A stretch of DNA of 21,237 bases from a virus. Location: positions 1 to 21,237 of the IMG/VR virus record IMGVR_UViG_3300043469_002327; one strand, 5' to 3'. The notes beneath the pieces are model-generated. The model did not search any database. It was not told where the DNA came from and worked only from the letters and a program-made list of their open reading frames with translations. Each line of letters starts with the position of its first letter. Positions within the stretch are counted from its first letter, which is position 1. The position numbers were made by a program, and so were the translations under genes. This document shows, in pieces, positions 3,485 through 10,806 of this stretch.

Positions 3485-4297
3485 ATGTCCTACGCAGCCA
3501 TTTCCGGAAAACTTTTAGACGGTTACCCGAAGACCCGTCGCAGCGCTTCGTCACAGGGGGAAACCTACAAGTACCTTGGAGACTACGCCCTGCTTTTTGC
3601 CAACCGGCCGGACATTCATGACGTTTGGGCGGGTGGCCTTGCGGTGTCGGGGCGGGAGTTTTACCGCGTTGGCCGCTCTGACCTGGCTGAACTCATCGTC
3701 GAGACAGACCAGCCAACAGACGGAGGCACGTCTGTTGCCAGCGTGCTCGATGAGACCCGCTACTCGAACAACTGGCAGCCCAACGACATTCCGCTTGAGC
3801 AGCATCCGGCCTTCATTCCGGGCGGTGCAAACGACCTGTTTGCGGCTGCATCGGGGTCGCCCAGCCGAAAACACATTGCCGACGTGTTTGGCTGGGAGAA
3901 CGAGCGAGACGTATCGCTGAAATATGCCTACCAGTATAAGATTATTGATTCTGCAGGCGTCCCATCGGCTACAGCTACAACCCTGACCGGCTCAGCCCTT
4001 GCCTTCGCCAAGCTGCGCAACATCGGCGTTTCAACCATCCCGGCATTCCTCCCGTGCTGGAGGAAGATCGGATCCTATACGGGCAGCGTCGCCCCAGGCG
4101 TTGGCGACATCGGCCAATATACTGCCACCCCTGACGGCACCGGATACCCGAGCGGTTACCAATGGGTAAAGATCGCAGATGATGCGGAGCGCATCGGACG
4201 CGGCCTGCGTTGGGAGCGCACCGAGGCCTGGCAGGGTTACAAAAAGGTGTGGTTCGACGTGGATACGCTTAACCCCGCCAGCAACACCCTGCCATGA
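3485..4297 (+). CDS. Unrecognised tail protein, distal-tail position
   Basis: 270 residues with no motif I can assign to a known family. It follows the tape measure, where lambda-like phages place minor tail/tail-tip proteins (M, L) and Gram-positive phages a distal tail protein. It is rich in aromatic residues and Gly/Ser/Thr, with alternating polar-apolar strands, for example ALLFANRPDIHDVWAGGL near the N-terminus and QWVKIADDAERIGRGLRWER near the C-terminus. No signal peptide or membrane segment is visible. It starts one base after the tape measure stop and overlaps the next gene by ATGA. A structural role in the tail tip or baseplate is inferred from position only. Confidence 0.55.
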   Translation: MSYAAISGKLLDGYPKTRRSASSQGETYKYLGDYALLFANRPDIHDVWAGGLAVSGREFYRVGRSDLAELIVETDQPTDGGTSVASVLDETRYSNNWQPNDIPLEQHPAFIPGGANDLFAAASGSPSRKHIADVFGWENERDVSLKYAYQYKIIDSAGVPSATATTLTGSALAFAKLRNIGVSTIPAFLPCWRKIGSYTGSVAPGVGDIGQYTATPDGTGYPSGYQWVKIADDAERIGRGLRWERTEAWQGYKKVWFDVDTLNPASNTLP

Positions 4298-4830
4298 ACC
4301 CCCGTTCAATCAACGTAGGGCCGGGGCTGATGCGTAAATCGTCCATGAACGGCGTGGTGATCACGCCGTTTACCCGGTCGCGGCCGGCGCAGAGTTCGCC
4401 AGGGGCGGAAGCACCCGTCTACCCGTTCGACCTCACGCTTGAGGACGCGGGCTCCACTTTCACAGGCAAGTTCCGCCCTGGCACGGTGAACGGGCTGATC
4501 CCGTCCAACTACGCATCGCTAACGGGCATATCCAAGACAGGGACGGTTTACATCGGCATTGTCTGCACCTTCTCCAATGCGGCGGTGCAGACAGCGGTGT
4601 TCGCGGCAGGCGGCACAGCCCCGCCCGCGTATCTGGTGACGATGAACGTGCCCCCGACCGATCTGAGCATCCTGACGCATGTCGTGGTCGACGGGGCGGT
4701 CTACCGCGTACTCGGGACAAACAGCATCACGGTAACTCCCCTGACCTCGTTCGTCACGGACAAGACCACCACCTTAGTACCGGGTGAGAAGTCCACGAAT
4801 ACGTGGTACACCTATTCGGTGACCTCATAA
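4294..4830 (+). CDS. Unrecognised tail protein, probable tail tip/baseplate
   Basis: 178 residues, starting on the ATGA overlap with the preceding tail gene. The N-terminal 45 residues are polar and Pro/Arg-rich. The rest is Thr/Val-rich and beta-like: YPFDLTLEDAGSTFTGKFRPG, then VNGLIPSNYASLTG, then TYSVTS at the end. A segment near GAVYRVLGTNSITVTPLTSFVTD looks like a beta sandwich strand series. The pattern of short strands and the location between a distal-tail candidate and the fibre suggest a component of the tail tip. No enzyme motif is visible, and I do not recognise the family. Confidence 0.5.
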   Translation: MNPRSINVGPGLMRKSSMNGVVITPFTRSRPAQSSPGAEAPVYPFDLTLEDAGSTFTGKFRPGTVNGLIPSNYASLTGISKTGTVYIGIVCTFSNAAVQTAVFAAGGTAPPAYLVTMNVPPTDLSILTHVVVDGAVYRVLGTNSITVTPLTSFVTDKTTTLVPGEKSTNTWYTYSVTS

Positions 4831-4831
4831 C

Positions 4832-6787
4832 ATGGCGATTTCATGGCAAAGAACCGTAGCGGGCCAGCAGCCTTGGGTATCCCAGATAAGCCAAGTTACC
4901 AGCCGATCGGGCACGGCGATTGGCGGGGTTGGGACAATATCGAGCACCTCGGCATCAAGCGCATACAGCGTAGGGAATGCCTCCAGCGCGACAGGCTTTT
5001 CTTCTGGGACGAGCAGTTTGTACAGCGTGTTTGGCACATCCCAGACAGAATCAGCTAACGGTAACACCGCCAGCGCCTTCGGAGCGTCAAATATCGGAGG
5101 TGGATTCGGTACAACTACATACAGTTACTCGTCCACCTACGCTGGTACCGCCACCTTTACCCGTACCAGCGCGCCCACTACGTCTTCCGGCAGTAACAGA
5201 TCCTCGGGCAGCTTAAGCCATGAAGTCACCAGAAACCTCGTCGGAAATAACTGGTCGCAGACCATCCGCGACACCACCTGTAACTTCGGGATTACCACGA
5301 CAAGCTCAACCACCTCGTCTGGGGTTGCTTCCGCTGCTTACACTTCGGGCACCAGTTCATCAGCGATAGTGGATTACCGAGCCCAGAGTACGACCCAGAC
5401 CACGACCCGCTCGATCATCACCAAGCACTCGGTTTCCAGCTTATCCAGCACCACCACCGAGAGCCAGACGTACACTGAGACACTCCAGACCTACGAAACA
5501 GTTAATACAACAACTAGGAGCTATCTAACGGGCAGCTATATTGCGGGCGTAAACCACACGCAGTCGGTCTGGGAGGCCGAATACTCGGAGTTTCTCCGAG
5601 CTATAACCGCGTCACCCACTACGTTTACCGGGCTGGACGCGCTGCTGGGTGGCGCGTCACGGTCCCTGATCCAGAGCACGATGGGGGGTCAGTATTCTTA
5701 CGCAGCGGCCATAAGCCAGGCGTTCACTACGTTTACCTATTCGGTGGTGGCGGGTAGCGGGGTTCCGACCACGCTAACCACCACATTCCAGAGCTTCGTA
5801 CCCGTAACGTGGGGAGCTTCGGACGGCTGGGTCGGCGGGACCAACACTACCCTTGGCTATGTAGGCGGAATATACACCTCCGCGCAGGCCATGACAATCC
5901 AGCTCACCACCTCAGCCAACACCCTTACGACTCGGGGGCGAGCCACCTATACTACTCTCAGCCTAGTGGGTATCAGCTACATCCTAACCGACACGATTAC
6001 GGGGATAAACTCCGCAGGCAGTTCCGCGAGCTACGTCATCCAGCGGGTAGGCTCAACATTGTCTAAGTACACCTCGACCATCGTGGTTAACGATGGCGAG
6101 GTGAGTAGTTCATCGGTATACGGTTTCTCCGTCACCAAGTTTATCAGCCCAGCGTTATACTATAACTTCGGCCGCGCATCCGTAAAACTAAGCCGATTAG
6201 AAAAGGCGCTAGGTTACCAACATGCGTCCAGTCTTGGATCGGGAGGCGGCAGGGGCGTTTCGCTATCTGCAAACAGCAGCTTCTTCATCGGCACGGGCAA
6301 CTATATCATGTGCGACCCCAACGGGGTGCGCGTACCCGTCCCCTCCGTATCAACGGCATCAACTGCCGACTCGTCCTACAGTTTCACCCAAGGGCCTGCT
6401 GGCCAGTGGTCCGTAACCGCGCTGCGCACGGATGCCTCCAGCAGCACCCTCACTACGTTCACTGCGTCCGTCGGCACCACCGGGGCCACCGATCTATTCA
6501 TGAACCAGTACGCATCGTGGTATAATTCATCCAGCGGTAGCGTGATCGGCGGGGCCAATGCGCTATCCGGGATAAACCAGATAGCCACTTTCCACAACGT
6601 AGCGGGCTGGAAATACACGCTCAAGGACGCCTCCAGCACCACCGCGTTTACCACGCATCTCCCGGCCTACACCACGGCAAACATCGGCACCAGTCTGTTC
6701 GCAGGCGACTCGTTCAGCGCGGCCTCGGACATATCGGTAAATGCGGAATCTCCACTCGGCTTTATGACACTGCCATTCAATCAATGA
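4832..6787 (+). CDS. Large Ser/Thr-rich tail fibre/spike-like protein
   Basis: 651 residues. Roughly a third of the residues are Ser or Thr, often in runs (SSTTTESQTYTETLQTYET around 205-225), with Gly, Ala and Tyr between them and very few charged residues. The composition is that of a long beta-structured fibre or spike exposed on the virion. Two Cys occur far apart. No peptidase, lyase or collagen-like repeat was recognised. It is the largest gene of the tail module and sits at its end, the usual place of the receptor-binding fibre. Its TGA overlaps the ATG of a glycosyltransferase (ATGA at 6784). Such a Ser/Thr density would be a natural substrate for O-glycosylation, which is an inference. 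Confidence 0.6.
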   Translation: MAISWQRTVAGQQPWVSQISQVTSRSGTAIGGVGTISSTSASSAYSVGNASSATGFSSGTSSLYSVFGTSQTESANGNTASAFGASNIGGGFGTTTYSYSSTYAGTATFTRTSAPTTSSGSNRSSGSLSHEVTRNLVGNNWSQTIRDTTCNFGITTTSSTTSSGVASAAYTSGTSSSAIVDYRAQSTTQTTTRSIITKHSVSSLSSTTTESQTYTETLQTYETVNTTTRSYLTGSYIAGVNHTQSVWEAEYSEFLRAITASPTTFTGLDALLGGASRSLIQSTMGGQYSYAAAISQAFTTFTYSVVAGSGVPTTLTTTFQSFVPVTWGASDGWVGGTNTTLGYVGGIYTSAQAMTIQLTTSANTLTTRGRATYTTLSLVGISYILTDTITGINSAGSSASYVIQRVGSTLSKYTSTIVVNDGEVSSSSVYGFSVTKFISPALYYNFGRASVKLSRLEKALGYQHASSLGSGGGRGVSLSANSSFFIGTGNYIMCDPNGVRVPVPSVSTASTADSSYSFTQGPAGQWSVTALRTDASSSTLTTFTASVGTTGATDLFMNQYASWYNSSSGSVIGGANALSGINQIATFHNVAGWKYTLKDASSTTAFTTHLPAYTTANIGTSLFAGDSFSAASDISVNAESPLGFMTLPFNQ

Positions 6788-7812
6788 AACTCTCCATAAT
6801 CGTCTGCGCCACCCGTTCCTACACCTACGCCATGAAGGCTCAAGCCCGCCGCGTGAGCGCGTGCCTGCACATGGCCAAGGTCGAGTCGGCGCGCGTGTTC
6901 ATCGTCGGCGACAAATCCAAGGAGCTCGAATCCATCCGCGATTACTGGAAGGATGAGCTCCCAACCTGCGAAGTGGACCTCATCGCCGACAAGCGCTTTA
7001 TCGAAGGCCAATCGGCTAACTACAAACAGGCCGCGCAACTGCTCATCGCCGACATGCGTACGGTGGCCCACGCGGCCGCACGCCGAGTCGACTCCGATTG
7101 GTGTTGGTCGCTCGATAGCGACACGCTACCCCAGCCCAACGCACTGCGCTGCCTGTTCGATGCGTGCAGGTTCGACGGTGGCCACTACGCGGTGGCGATG
7201 TGCCCCTATCCCAACACGGCATTCTTGGGCGGCTTCGGCACGCCACAGAACCCCATCGCCGAAGACTTTCTTCCTCATGAGCGCGCGCTGCCTCCCCGCA
7301 TCAAGATGCTCTGGGAAACCAACGAGGCACGGCTCAAGGAGTGGAGCGCTCCCGATCGCCCCAACAAGCTGCTGGCCCGCCGCGATCGCCTGCACAAGCG
7401 GATCAAAGCCTGTCCCCCCGACGGCAATATCTGGCAAGTCACCGCCAAGCACGGCTGGCGTCGCCGCGGATGGCTGGATAGCGCGTATCCCGGCATCGGC
7501 CACGGCGCCATGGTGCCGACTGATTGGGTGGGCTTTGGCTGCACGCTCATGAACCGCCAAGCGCTCGCCCTGGCACACTTCGAGGGCTACGACGGCCAAG
7601 GCACCGAGGATCTGTTCATCGGCTGGCACCGCTGGATCCCGGCCGGCCTGCGCATGGCGGTGCTGCCGCATTGCCCAGCCGACCACGTTATCAACGATAA
7701 GAAAAAGGGCGGAGAGGAGATTAAGTACGTACTCCACCACGTGCACCACGAGCAGAGCGGCGAATGCGTCGGCCATCTGCGCGTGCGCCAAGTGCCCTGG
7801 CGTGTGGAGTGA
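6784..7812 (+). CDS. GT-A fold glycosyltransferase, phage-encoded
   Basis: 342 residues. The N-terminus KLSIIVCATR is the nucleotide-binding first strand of GT-A enzymes. Residues 103-117 (VDSDWCWSLDSDTLP) hold a hydrophobic strand ending in a DxD motif (D111-x-D113) that binds the metal and nucleotide sugar. VGFGCTLMNRQAL (249-261) resembles the acceptor-side segment of GT2-like enzymes, and GTEDLFIGWH (273-282) contains the Glu-Asp pair often serving as catalytic base. His-rich residues near the C-terminus (HHVHHEQ) could add metal contacts. It has no signal or TM segment, so it is cytosolic. Translational coupling to the Ser/Thr-rich fibre suggests it decorates that fibre or another virion protein; host surface modification is the alternative. 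Confidence 0.7.
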   Translation: MKLSIIVCATRSYTYAMKAQARRVSACLHMAKVESARVFIVGDKSKELESIRDYWKDELPTCEVDLIADKRFIEGQSANYKQAAQLLIADMRTVAHAAARRVDSDWCWSLDSDTLPQPNALRCLFDACRFDGGHYAVAMCPYPNTAFLGGFGTPQNPIAEDFLPHERALPPRIKMLWETNEARLKEWSAPDRPNKLLARRDRLHKRIKACPPDGNIWQVTAKHGWRRRGWLDSAYPGIGHGAMVPTDWVGFGCTLMNRQALALAHFEGYDGQGTEDLFIGWHRWIPAGLRMAVLPHCPADHVINDKKKGGEEIKYVLHHVHHEQSGECVGHLRVRQVPWRVE

Positions 7813-8530: not shown

Positions 8531-8618
8531 GTGTATGAGAGGAGAAAACAGGGGTTTAGAGCCCCTTCTTCAATTTGGGCAAGTTGGCAGTAATTCACCG
8601 ATTTTCGCCGGTTTTCTT

Positions 8619-8644
8619 GATTCTCGCCAAGATTCTCGCCAACT
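8619..8644. repeat. Tandem integrase arm-type sites (right arm)
   Basis: GATTCTCGCCAA occurs twice head to tail at 8619-8630 and 8631-8642, the second continuing as CT. They match the inverted sites at 8422-8455. Degenerate relatives lie at 8582-8594 (AGTTGGC...) and 8601-8611 (ATTTTCGCCGG). Their position just upstream of the likely integrase ATG would also allow autoregulation. Confidence 0.65.
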
Positions 8645-8651
8645 GTACGGC

Positions 8652-9863
8652 ATGGCCCGACACCGCGAGAATCTGCTCCGCATAATCCCGCTCGCCGGCG
8701 GCTCATGGCTCCTTGATGGATTCCATCTCGGTAAGCGTATCAGGAAACAGGGGCGCGACGTCAACGCGCTGCGCGTGAAGATGCAGGAAATGCAGGCCGT
8801 GCTCACGCAGGCTACCGAAAACATCATGGCTCCGCGCATGACCAGGCTCACCGAGGCCCAGCTCCGCGATGCCGAGGCCGCAGTGGAGCGGGCAGGGGGG
8901 CGCTCGCTACTCTCCTGCGTGATCGCCTCCGACCGCGTCATGGTCAAGGGCGACCCCGTTGCCCTTAACTTTGCCCTTAAAGATTGGCTTGCTCATCAAG
9001 CCGAGCGTGGCCGGCAGAAGGACACGATGGAGAATAACCTAGGGCGGTCCCGCGCTTTCATCGCCTGGCTGGCTGATCAGGGCATCACCACCGTGGGCGC
9101 CGTGACCCCCGAGCACTACGAATCCTTCGTTTACCGCGGTAAACGCGCCGATTTCACGCGCAAAAACGACGCCTCCGTCCTCCAAGCCTGGGCAAACCAC
9201 TGGAAAAAGCGCCGCTGGGTTAAGGAAATCCCCTTCGAGGTAGACACCAAAGACCTGAGCAGCCGCGCCCGCTCCGTCGATTTGCCGCGTATTTTGACGC
9301 CGGGACAGGCCCACGCACTACTTGCGGCCGCAAAAGCCCGTGGCGGCGCGCGGTTGGCGGCCTACGTTGCGCTGGCGTGCTGGTGTTTTGCCCGCCATGC
9401 GGAGGTTTTACGGGTTTCGACTGACGACCTGAAGCTCGACGGCAAGATTCCGGTGGTCGAGATCCGGCCGCGAAAGCGCGGCACGGTGAGTTATCGGGCA
9501 GTGACCGTGCCCGCGTGCGTTCTGCAGGTTCTGCGCGATGCGAAGGCGGAGGCGGTGGCAGCGCATGAGGCTGAGAAGCTGCCGCCTGGGCCCGTCGTCT
9601 CATGGGGCCGCGTGCGCTGGGGCGCTGTGCGGGAAGTAGCTGGCCTGGCTGAGCGTGGGGCCATCGCCAACAAAAAGCGCCCGGTGCATTCGGCGATCTG
9701 GCAAGAAAACATCCTGCGCCATACCGGCCTGTCCTACTTTTTCCAGAAATCGGGAGACATCACCGAGACCTGCCGACAGGCGGGCAACTCATCGTCTACG
9801 GCATTCGCGCATTATTTGAACCTGCCAGTTGAGGGGGCGTCTGAGGCGTTTTTTGGGGCCTGA
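8652..9863 (+). CDS. int: Tyrosine recombinase integrase
   Basis: 403 residues from the ATG at 8652. The frame stays open to 8535, but the extra 39 codons would translate the arm-site repeats (DSRQDSRQ), so the shorter start is preferred; neither start has a clear Shine-Dalgarno sequence. Residues about 95-185 form an SAM-like core-binding domain (ALKDWLAHQAERGRQ, then AFIAWLADQGI). The catalytic domain has Arg-I in CFARHAEVLRV (R248, E251), the beta-hairpin Lys in RPRKRGTV (K275), Arg-II in NILRHTG (R356) and the nucleophile in AFAHYLN (Y388). The usual His of HxxR is Asn, and the His/Trp before the Tyr is also Asn (AGNSS). It mediates integration at the adjacent tRNA-Thr attP. Confidence 0.9.
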   Translation: MARHRENLLRIIPLAGGSWLLDGFHLGKRIRKQGRDVNALRVKMQEMQAVLTQATENIMAPRMTRLTEAQLRDAEAAVERAGGRSLLSCVIASDRVMVKGDPVALNFALKDWLAHQAERGRQKDTMENNLGRSRAFIAWLADQGITTVGAVTPEHYESFVYRGKRADFTRKNDASVLQAWANHWKKRRWVKEIPFEVDTKDLSSRARSVDLPRILTPGQAHALLAAAKARGGARLAAYVALACWCFARHAEVLRVSTDDLKLDGKIPVVEIRPRKRGTVSYRAVTVPACVLQVLRDAKAEAVAAHEAEKLPPGPVVSWGRVRWGAVREVAGLAERGAIANKKRPVHSAIWQENILRHTGLSYFFQKSGDITETCRQAGNSSSTAFAHYLNLPVEGASEAFFGA

Positions 9864-9885
9864 GTCGTCCCAAAGTGCGTTTTTC

Positions 9886-9926
9886 TTATCCGTCCAGACC
9901 AGCGCAGCGCCAGTCTGGACGGATAA
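9886..9926 (+). terminator. 14-bp stem-loop downstream of integrase
   Basis: TTATCCGTCCAGAC (9886-9899) and GTCTGGACGGATAA (9913-9926) are perfect inverted repeats around a 13-nt loop, 22 bases after the integrase stop. It is followed by A-rich rather than T-rich sequence, so it is not a classical intrinsic terminator. It may be an integrase mRNA end structure (sib-like) or a protein-binding dyad. The word TATCCGTCC recurs at 10043-10051. Confidence 0.5.
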
Positions 9927-9974
9927 AAAGAAAATTAGCAAGTTTAAAGTTCTAAGTAGTTGATTGTTAATAAA

Positions 9975-10195: not shown

Positions 10196-10284
10196 CCGGG
10201 GCTGGTCTACCGCCACCCAGTGAAATCAGATTTTGGATAAAATTCTTTTAACCCATGCGGGTTGTGTGCCGATTAACTTCAAAG

Positions 10285-10302
10285 CCCCCCCCCCACCCCC
10301 CC
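10285..10302 (+). repeat. Poly-C tract abutting the receiver gene start
   Basis: Ten C, one A and seven C lie directly before the ATG at 10303, where a ribosome binding site would be. Homopolymers of this length are prone to slippage. If translation instead starts at 10255, the tract is coding (KPPPHPP) and slippage would change the frame. Confidence 0.55.
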
Positions 10303-10806
10303 ATGCGCATCCTAATCGCCGACGACACCGAGTCCATGCACGAGGTTTACCGCCTGATCCTGTGTCCCGCGACGCGCTCCGTGCCCAACTTTGAAGCGCT
10401 TTCAAAATTCGCCCCTGATTTCGCTGAACTCCCCCAGCGCACGGTGAGCCATGAGCTTACTTTTGTTTACCAAGGCAGGGACGCAGTTGCCGCAGTAGAT
10501 TCCGCCTTCATGGCCAGGACGCCATTTGACATCGCCATTCTCGACGTGCGTATGCCACCCGGCATCACCGGAGTGGCAGCGGCCTTGCAGATCCGCGAGC
10601 GCCATCCCGATCTACATTTTATCATCTGTTCGGCATTTTCCGATTTTACGTGGCCCGACCTCGCCGAGCGTTTCAGTCATGGGGTCGTAATCATTCGCAA
10701 GCCCTTTGATTTTATCGAGTTGCTTATGACCGTGGAATCCATCGGGGAAAAGGTCGGCATGCGCCGCGAGATTGAGGCGCTCAAGCGAAAGGCTGGCCGT
10801 GAATAA
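10303..10806 (+). CDS. Stand-alone response-regulator receiver (CheY-like) protein
   Basis: 167 residues from ATG 10303 (an upstream in-frame ATG at 10255 would add 16 residues including the poly-C translation). All receiver landmarks are present: acidic pair D7-D8 in RILIADD, phospho-acceptor D81 in AILDVRMPPG, Ser110 in IICSAFSD (the usual Thr/Ser) and K133 in IIRKPFD. An insertion of about 30 residues after the first helix, followed by FVYQGRDAV, matches a receiver subfamily in bacterial signalling proteins (IHE...FAYQG...VDVRMPPG...CTAYSD...KKPFD). There is no output domain; the end is a basic helix (REIEALKRKAG). It overlaps the coiled-coil gene by 8 bases. It probably acts by protein contact and is a likely lysogenic-conversion gene that intercepts host phospho-relay. 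That role is inference. Confidence 0.8.
   Translation: MRILIADDTESMHEVYRLILCPATRSVPNFEALSKFAPDFAELPQRTVSHELTFVYQGRDAVAAVDSAFMARTPFDIAILDVRMPPGITGVAAALQIRERHPDLHFIICSAFSDFTWPDLAERFSHGVVIIRKPFDFIELLMTVESIGEKVGMRREIEALKRKAGRE

What the first reader, a model, noticed from the sequence alone, without database searches (positions are those of the whole stretch)
4832..7812. Ser/Thr-rich fibre translationally coupled to its own glycosyltransferase
A 651-aa protein with roughly one third Ser/Thr overlaps a GT-A glycosyltransferase (DxD at 111-113, ED at 275-276) by ATGA at the end of the structural operon. Late co-expression argues for modification of virion proteins rather than lysogenic surface conversion. 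Glycosylated tail fibres are little documented and could shield receptors or tune adsorption.
Basis: inference. Interest (0 to 1): 0.7.

Follow-up and report, generated by a model that had tools for sequence, protein, structure and literature searches.

The report
Phage sugar-transferase paired with Ser/Thr-rich protein
A large, undescribed group of viruses, several of them found in Verrucomicrobiota-type bacteria, keeps a sugar-adding enzyme next to a fast-changing protein that is one third serine and threonine, which suggests that these viruses coat part of their own tail with sugar.

Summary
ORF 4832-6787 (651 aa, 34% Ser+Thr) overlaps ORF 6784-7812 (342 aa) by ATGA; DSD 111-113 and ED 275-276 are where stated. 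AlphaFold2 plus Foldseek give the second protein a GT-A fold; best PDB hits include protein O-glycosyltransferases.

The pairing is not local. Among 88 distinct GT relatives, nearly all with enough flank have a long Ser/Thr-rich ORF next door: about 73 upstream on the same strand, 10 convergent with abutting stops, with at least two orientation switches on the GT tree. A conserved ~200-aa gene (window 4294-4830) precedes the Ser/Thr-rich gene: a three-gene cassette. The Ser/Thr-rich partner is hypervariable (44 mutually undetectable clusters; only 41% detectable when GTs exceed 90% identity), yet stays Ser/Thr-rich (mostly 24-40%). Verrucomicrobiota prophages with the conserved gene but no GT have about 14% Ser+Thr in that slot, but this is a single split on the tree.

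Best reading: the GT O-glycosylates its neighbour, probably a tail fibre. No glycan, sugar donor or virion location is shown. No isolated phage was found with this GT. New variant of phage virion glycosylation.

The parts
4294..4830 (+).
   Evidence: phmmer finds homologues in about 70 GT loci, directly before the Ser/Thr-rich gene, including convergent loci; no Pfam or PHROGs family
4832..6787 (+). 651-aa Ser/Thr-rich protein, putative tail fibre and proposed acceptor
   Evidence: 34.2% Ser+Thr; a relative in L001 at 34% identity over 421 aa; Ser/Thr-rich ORF in the same slot in nearly all GT loci
6784..7812 (+). 342-aa GT-A glycosyltransferase; DSD 111-113, ED 275-276, invariant D113, D276, H301
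   Evidence: AlphaFold2 pLDDT 83.6, pTM 0.77; Foldseek to GT-A enzymes, probability 1.00, E 3.4e-9; alignment A1
6784..6787 (+). ATGA stop/start overlap
   Evidence: sequence; the same 4-nt overlap in L001, L004, L051 and others

Best explanation
The 342-aa protein is a soluble, phage-encoded GT-A glycosyltransferase dedicated to its neighbour. Made from the same tail-gene transcript, at a level matched by the stop/start overlap, it transfers sugar from a nucleotide-sugar donor onto Ser/Thr hydroxyls of the 651-aa Ser/Thr-rich protein in the cytoplasm before or during tail assembly. The modified protein is carried on the tail, next to the product of the conserved gene at 4294-4830. The enzyme probably reads composition or exposed Ser/Thr rather than one sequon, so the partner can change its sequence while keeping its Ser/Thr. 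SHOWN: the GT-A fold (by prediction), the gene pairing across many viruses, hypervariability with conserved composition. INFERRED: the substrate, the linkage, the fibre role, and the effect (masking, receptor choice or adhesion).
For: GT-A fold. Ser/Thr-rich gene adjacent in nearly all GT loci with enough flank. Adjacency survives inversion: convergent arrangement in two lineages, two changes forced by supported branches. Partner sequence turns over completely while composition stays. Scan started from the conserved gene of one clade returns GT and Ser/Thr-rich gene in every contig that reaches far enough. GT-minus prophages have a Ser/Thr-normal protein in the slot. Sugar-pathway genes beside the GT in some relatives: dTDP-sugar isomerase-like cupin in 19 loci, a group-1 GT in four. 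No transmembrane segment.
Against: No glycan, donor or acceptor is shown. The GT-plus/GT-minus contrast is a single split on the tree, so it is not independent evidence. Fibre identity rests on position; the structure model failed. Other genes near the GT in some relatives could also be substrates (collagen-like ORFs in up to 18 of 87 loci).
Confidence: 0.66

Rival explanations
1. The GT modifies the virion, but its main substrate is another protein (a downstream collagen-like or other fibre, the conserved gene's product, the capsid). The Ser/Thr-rich protein is a beta-rich fibre whose composition is a structural trait.
For: Ser/Thr enriched at spacing two and away from proline, as in beta-structure; Gly-X-Y repeat ORFs, several with GAT triplets, 0.4-5 kb downstream in up to 18 of 87 loci; top Foldseek hit is a collagen galactosyltransferase, though many GT-A enzymes match.
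Against: Only the Ser/Thr-rich gene is adjacent in nearly all loci and in both orientations; GT-minus relatives with equivalent tail genes lack the Ser/Thr excess, though that is one event.
Confidence: 0.16
2. Lysogenic conversion: the GT modifies host surface glycan to exclude superinfection, and its place beside a tail gene is incidental.
For: In the window the GT precedes an integrase-like gene (8535-9863, weak PF00589 match), the usual site of conversion genes; bacterial wall-glycan GTs such as TarS and TarP are among the structural matches.
Against: No membrane segments in the family, no flippase or membrane GT genes recognised beside it; in relatives the GT is followed by more tail-type genes; strict pairing with a Ser/Thr-rich gene in two orientations.
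Confidence: 0.12
3. The GT-like protein acts on something else (phage DNA, a small molecule) or serves as a non-catalytic assembly factor for the fibre.
For: Phage GTs that modify DNA are known (cited in PMC12619734); a gene kept beside a variable fibre could be a fibre chaperone; position 111 is D or E and 275 is E or Q in the family.
Against: D113, D276, H301 and the GYDGxGT segment are invariant or nearly so, as expected of an active enzyme; no DNA base-modification gene recognised in the window.
Confidence: 0.06

Closest known systems
Mycobacteriophage virion glycosylation (Freeman et al. 2023; paper not held, read through PMC12619734 and PMC11256854)
   Same: Phage-encoded glycosyltransferases proposed or shown to put glycans on virion proteins
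   Different: There: capsid and tail-tube subunits, GT genes near the 3' end of the genome in the related phage Maravista. Here: one soluble GT locked beside a hypervariable Ser/Thr-rich tail-region gene; no glycan shown
Collagen galactosyltransferase COLGALT1 (PDB 9evj) and LH3
   Same: GT-A fold; best structural matches (E 3.4e-9); glycosylate a protein
   Different: 11-12% identity, TM-score 0.47 by query length; hydroxylysine acceptor in the ER; sequence membership not met
Polypeptide GalNAc-transferases (GT27, PGANT9, GalNAc-T2)
   Same: GT-A fold, Ser/Thr O-glycosylation of proteins (general knowledge); structural match
   Different: 12-13% identity; no lectin domain here (342 aa)
Glycosylated serine-rich repeat (Srr) adhesins with their own GTs (general knowledge)
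   Same: A long Ser-rich surface protein encoded beside its glycosyltransferase; one relative (L189) has a 55% Ser+Thr repeat protein after the GT
   Different: Bacterial, exported, GT-B enzymes GtfA/GtfB and accessory secretion; window protein is not a Ser repeat
Gtr serotype-conversion genes of temperate phages (general knowledge)
   Same: Phage GT close to an integrase gene
   Different: No flippase or membrane GT neighbours recognised; soluble; embedded among tail genes in relatives

Membership tests
GT-A fold glycosyltransferases | Single Rossmann-like alpha/beta GT-A domain | tested here: met
   AlphaFold2 pLDDT 83.6; Foldseek to many GT-A enzymes with probability 1.00
GT-A fold glycosyltransferases | DxD-type metal/donor motif and C-terminal acidic motif | tested here: met
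   [DE]SD at 111-113 with D113 invariant; [EQ]D at 275-276 with D276 invariant
Pfam Glycos_transf_2 / Glyco_tranf_2_3 | Score above the curated cut-off | tested here: not met
   14.7 bits against 23.3 and 13.9 against 27; 13 of 30 relatives hit PF13641, best E 4e-5
GT25 / COLGALT | Sequence-level similarity to the family | tested here: not met
   No PDB sequence hit to COLGALT, no Pfam GT25 match; structural similarity only
Phage virion glycosylation system | Phage-encoded GT | tested here: met
   Virus record, tail operon, IMG/VR relatives
Phage virion glycosylation system | Glycan covalently bound to a virion protein | not testable with these tools
   Needs virion glycoproteomics
Tail fibre / receptor-binding protein (for 4832-6787) | Homology or fold of a known fibre | tested here: inconclusive
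   No family match; model of a member of another partner cluster pLDDT 41, all-beta but unreliable
Tail fibre / receptor-binding protein (for 4832-6787) | Location at the end of the tail gene block | tested here: met
Gtr serotype conversion | Membrane GT and flippase neighbours | tested here: not met
   Maximum 19-residue hydropathy 1.08 in the GT, 1.45 in the family; no such genes recognised beside it
Mucin-type O-glycosylated domain | Pro/Thr/Ser-rich disordered repeats | tested here: not met
   Pro 2% in the window protein, depleted next to Ser/Thr in the set; no repeat array in the ORF

The most novel reading that the evidence does not exclude
A phage tail module in which the surface chemistry is made by one conserved enzyme acting on a protein under selection for composition rather than sequence: the Ser/Thr-rich protein is a freely diverging glycan carrier, so protein-level recognition of the tail finds no stable target while the glycan coat sets adhesion or shielding.
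Probability: 0.25. Interest if true: 0.82.

Novelty: new variant of a known kind. Interest (0 to 1): 0.62.

Why it matters
Phage virion glycosylation is documented in few systems, on capsid and tail tube. This would be a widespread cassette (over 100 related loci in IMG/VR) that targets a hypervariable tail-region protein, in viruses with hosts in Verrucomicrobiota, Kiritimatiellota and perhaps Planctomycetota, whose phages are little studied. It offers a defined enzyme-substrate pair for testing what glycans do on a phage tail, and a possible source of a soluble protein O-glycosyltransferase with loose sequence demand.

Tried and rejected
Family libraries gave nothing usable for the Ser/Thr-rich protein, nor did tblastn-confirmed search in IMG/VR. 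AlphaFold2 on a 20-member Ser/Thr-rich cluster failed (pLDDT 41), so no fold search was made with it. No record among 50,697 phage genomes matched the GT or the conserved gene. A diversity-generating retroelement as cause of the hypervariability: the only reverse-transcriptase-like motif was inside an 840-aa tail-type ORF, judged chance. Mucin-like disorder: rejected on proline and periodicity. An apparent set of exceptions without an upstream Ser/Thr-rich gene turned out to have it convergent. The GT-plus versus GT-minus contrast looked very strong (p 2.7e-11) but rests on one tree split, and some GT-minus slots are doubtful ORFs, so it is not used as independent statistics. A search for GT losses inside the GT-plus clade found none, only contigs cut off too early.

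Full report
WHAT IS THERE. The window is a linear IMG/VR virus record of 21,237 bases. ORF 4832-6787 encodes 651 aa with 34.2% Ser+Thr and overlaps ORF 6784-7812 (342 aa) by ATGA. Upstream lie a tail-completion/terminator gene (PF11367), an HK97 gp10-like gene (PF04883, phrog_5), a likely tape measure (by position), and a 178-aa gene at 4294-4830; downstream is an integrase-like gene with a weak Pfam match.

THE ENZYME. Sequence libraries barely see it: PF00535 and PF13641 are below cut-off, although 13 of 30 relatives hit PF13641, best 4e-5. With 30 aligned sequences AlphaFold2 gives pLDDT 83.6 and pTM 0.77, and Foldseek finds GT-A enzymes with probability 1.00: collagen galactosyltransferase COLGALT1 (E 3.4e-9), lysyl hydroxylase LH3, chondroitin polymerase, polypeptide GalNAc-transferases, TarS/TarP, and many annotated viral glycosyltransferases. 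D113, D276 and H301 are invariant; the first position of the DxD motif is D or E and position 275 is E or Q. There is no obvious transmembrane segment in the family. The GT-A assignment is firm; donor, acceptor and inverting or retaining chemistry are not known.

THE PAIRING. Two IMG/VR scans and one of GTDB genomes gave well over 100 relatives of the enzyme. Of 88 distinct ones, 70 have a Ser/Thr-rich long ORF as nearest such neighbour, directly upstream on the same strand. L002, L034 and L084, listed otherwise by the automatic rule, also have the upstream gene. The apparent exceptions are the most telling: in ten loci the Ser/Thr-rich gene is on the other strand, tail to tail with the GT, stops abutting (L057 and the L065 group). 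The few remaining loci are cut by contig ends (L078, L108, L114) or have a wider gap (L118, 179 nt); in the metagenome fragment L044 the candidate is 1.5 kb away. A maximum-likelihood GT tree needs two orientation changes, both forced by supported branches. Adjacency therefore survived rearrangement, which mere inheritance of one operon does not explain.

THE THIRD GENE. The 178-aa gene has homologues directly before the Ser/Thr-rich gene in about 70 loci, including convergent ones. Starting from this gene instead of the GT, scans with the homologues of two clades returned loci that have both the Ser/Thr-rich gene (28-39%) and the GT wherever the contig reaches far enough. So the unit is a cassette: conserved gene, Ser/Thr-rich gene, GT.

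HYPERVARIABLE, BUT ALWAYS SER/THR-RICH. Eighty-two partner proteins fall into 44 clusters with no detectable similarity between them by BLAST, and iterated profile searches from five starting points did not join them further to any extent. Among GT pairs above 90% identity the conserved gene is detected in 100% (median 57% identity) and the Ser/Thr-rich partner in 41%. Pooled composition is nevertheless Thr 16.8% and Ser 14.0%. Ser/Thr is spread over the whole length, enriched at spacing two, and avoids proline, which points to beta-structure rather than a mucin-like chain. A model of one cluster is all-beta but of no confidence.

A CONTROL WITHOUT THE ENZYME, AND ITS LIMIT. Verrucomicrobiota prophages with the conserved gene but no GT have the same gene order in the clear cases (tape measure, about 235 aa, conserved gene, next gene; L149, L150, L151, L155), yet the next gene has median 14.4% Ser+Thr (n = 19, maximum 23.5%) against 30.9% (n = 79) with the GT. 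Some of the GT-minus slots are doubtful ORFs. More important, on a tree of the conserved gene GT-plus and GT-minus are two sides of one branch. The contrast is in the expected direction but is one evolutionary event; the rank-test p value must not be taken at face value.

SUGAR GENES IN THE NEIGHBOURHOOD. In 19 loci a small cupin matching PF14667, and below cut-off PF00908 (dTDP-sugar epimerase) and FdtA, lies beside the GT. In four a group-1 GT (PF00534, 5e-12) lies before the Ser/Thr-rich gene; in a few a DUF3431 protein overlaps the GT end. These fit a phage that tailors its own glycan. In L046/L189 (Kiritimatiellaeota bacterium B1221) a 462-aa serine-repeat protein (55% Ser+Thr) directly follows the GT.

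HOSTS. Genome hits are a Rariglobus MAG, an Opitutales MAG, a Chthoniobacter MAG, Kiritimatiellaeota bacterium B1221 and a Planctomycetota MAG. The family is rare in cellular genomes (2 of 286 drawn from the class of the Rariglobus MAG, both already known) and was not found in GenBank phage records. The window's nearest host-linked relative is in the Rariglobus MAG (78% GT identity), so an Opitutaceae host is likely (inference).

HOW IT MOST LIKELY WORKS. The GT O-glycosylates Ser/Thr of the neighbouring tail-region protein in the cytoplasm during assembly; overlap or close spacing keeps dose matched in most lineages; recognition is by composition or exposure. The purpose (shielding, receptor choice, adhesion) is open. 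Rivals: another virion substrate; modification of host surface glycan; another or no enzymatic role. In the window the GT precedes an integrase-like gene, the classical site of conversion genes, but in relatives further tail-type genes follow it.

COMPARED WITH WHAT IS KNOWN. Phage virion glycosylation is established for mycobacteriophages on capsid and tail tube (Freeman et al. 2023, read only through PMC12619734 and PMC11256854). Literature searches here found no description of a GT paired with a hypervariable Ser/Thr-rich tail-region protein; the library holds open-licence papers only, so absence is weak evidence. The system would work like dedicated protein O-glycosylation; membership in GT2 or GT25 is not met at sequence level. 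Verdict: real feature, new variant of a known kind, interest 0.62.

Noticed in passing
G345:C1, conserved-gene hits at 4485437, 4521157, 4556877, 4592597 (L176, L185, L187, L188): Four identical-scoring hits at exactly 35,720-base spacing in one Verrucomicrobiota genome: what looks like four tandem copies of one prophage, or an assembly artefact.
   Followed up: no
L189:11174-12562 (G003, Kiritimatiellaeota bacterium B1221): A 462-aa protein with 55% Ser+Thr, made of SSDSSLSS-type repeats, directly follows the GT; short 50% Ser/Thr proteins also occur in L063 and L118.
   Followed up: partly
window 10255-10806: A response-regulator receiver protein (PF00072, 7.8e-9) lies between the integrase-like gene and the early genes: an unusual cargo for a phage.
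   Followed up: no
window 1-21237: Gene order is tail, GT, integrase, early genes, HNH and what looks like a small terminase: the record looks like a permuted, incomplete temperate phage lacking its head genes (inference).
   Followed up: no
window 9880-9932: A 26-nt inverted repeat (85% complementary, 1-nt gap) just after the integrase-like gene, like a strong terminator.
   Followed up: no
L154:4871-7509 (G320): A 619-aa protein whose N-terminus matches the conserved gene is followed by a 272-aa ORF with a DxD-like motif; Pfam did not confirm a glycosyltransferase.
   Followed up: partly
18 loci, for example L033:10724-11968, L047:11712-14045, L040:4042-7671: Downstream ORFs with runs of 8-34 Gly-X-Y triplets, mostly collagen-like tail-type proteins (a few, such as those in L044 and L062, are only Gly-rich).
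   Followed up: partly
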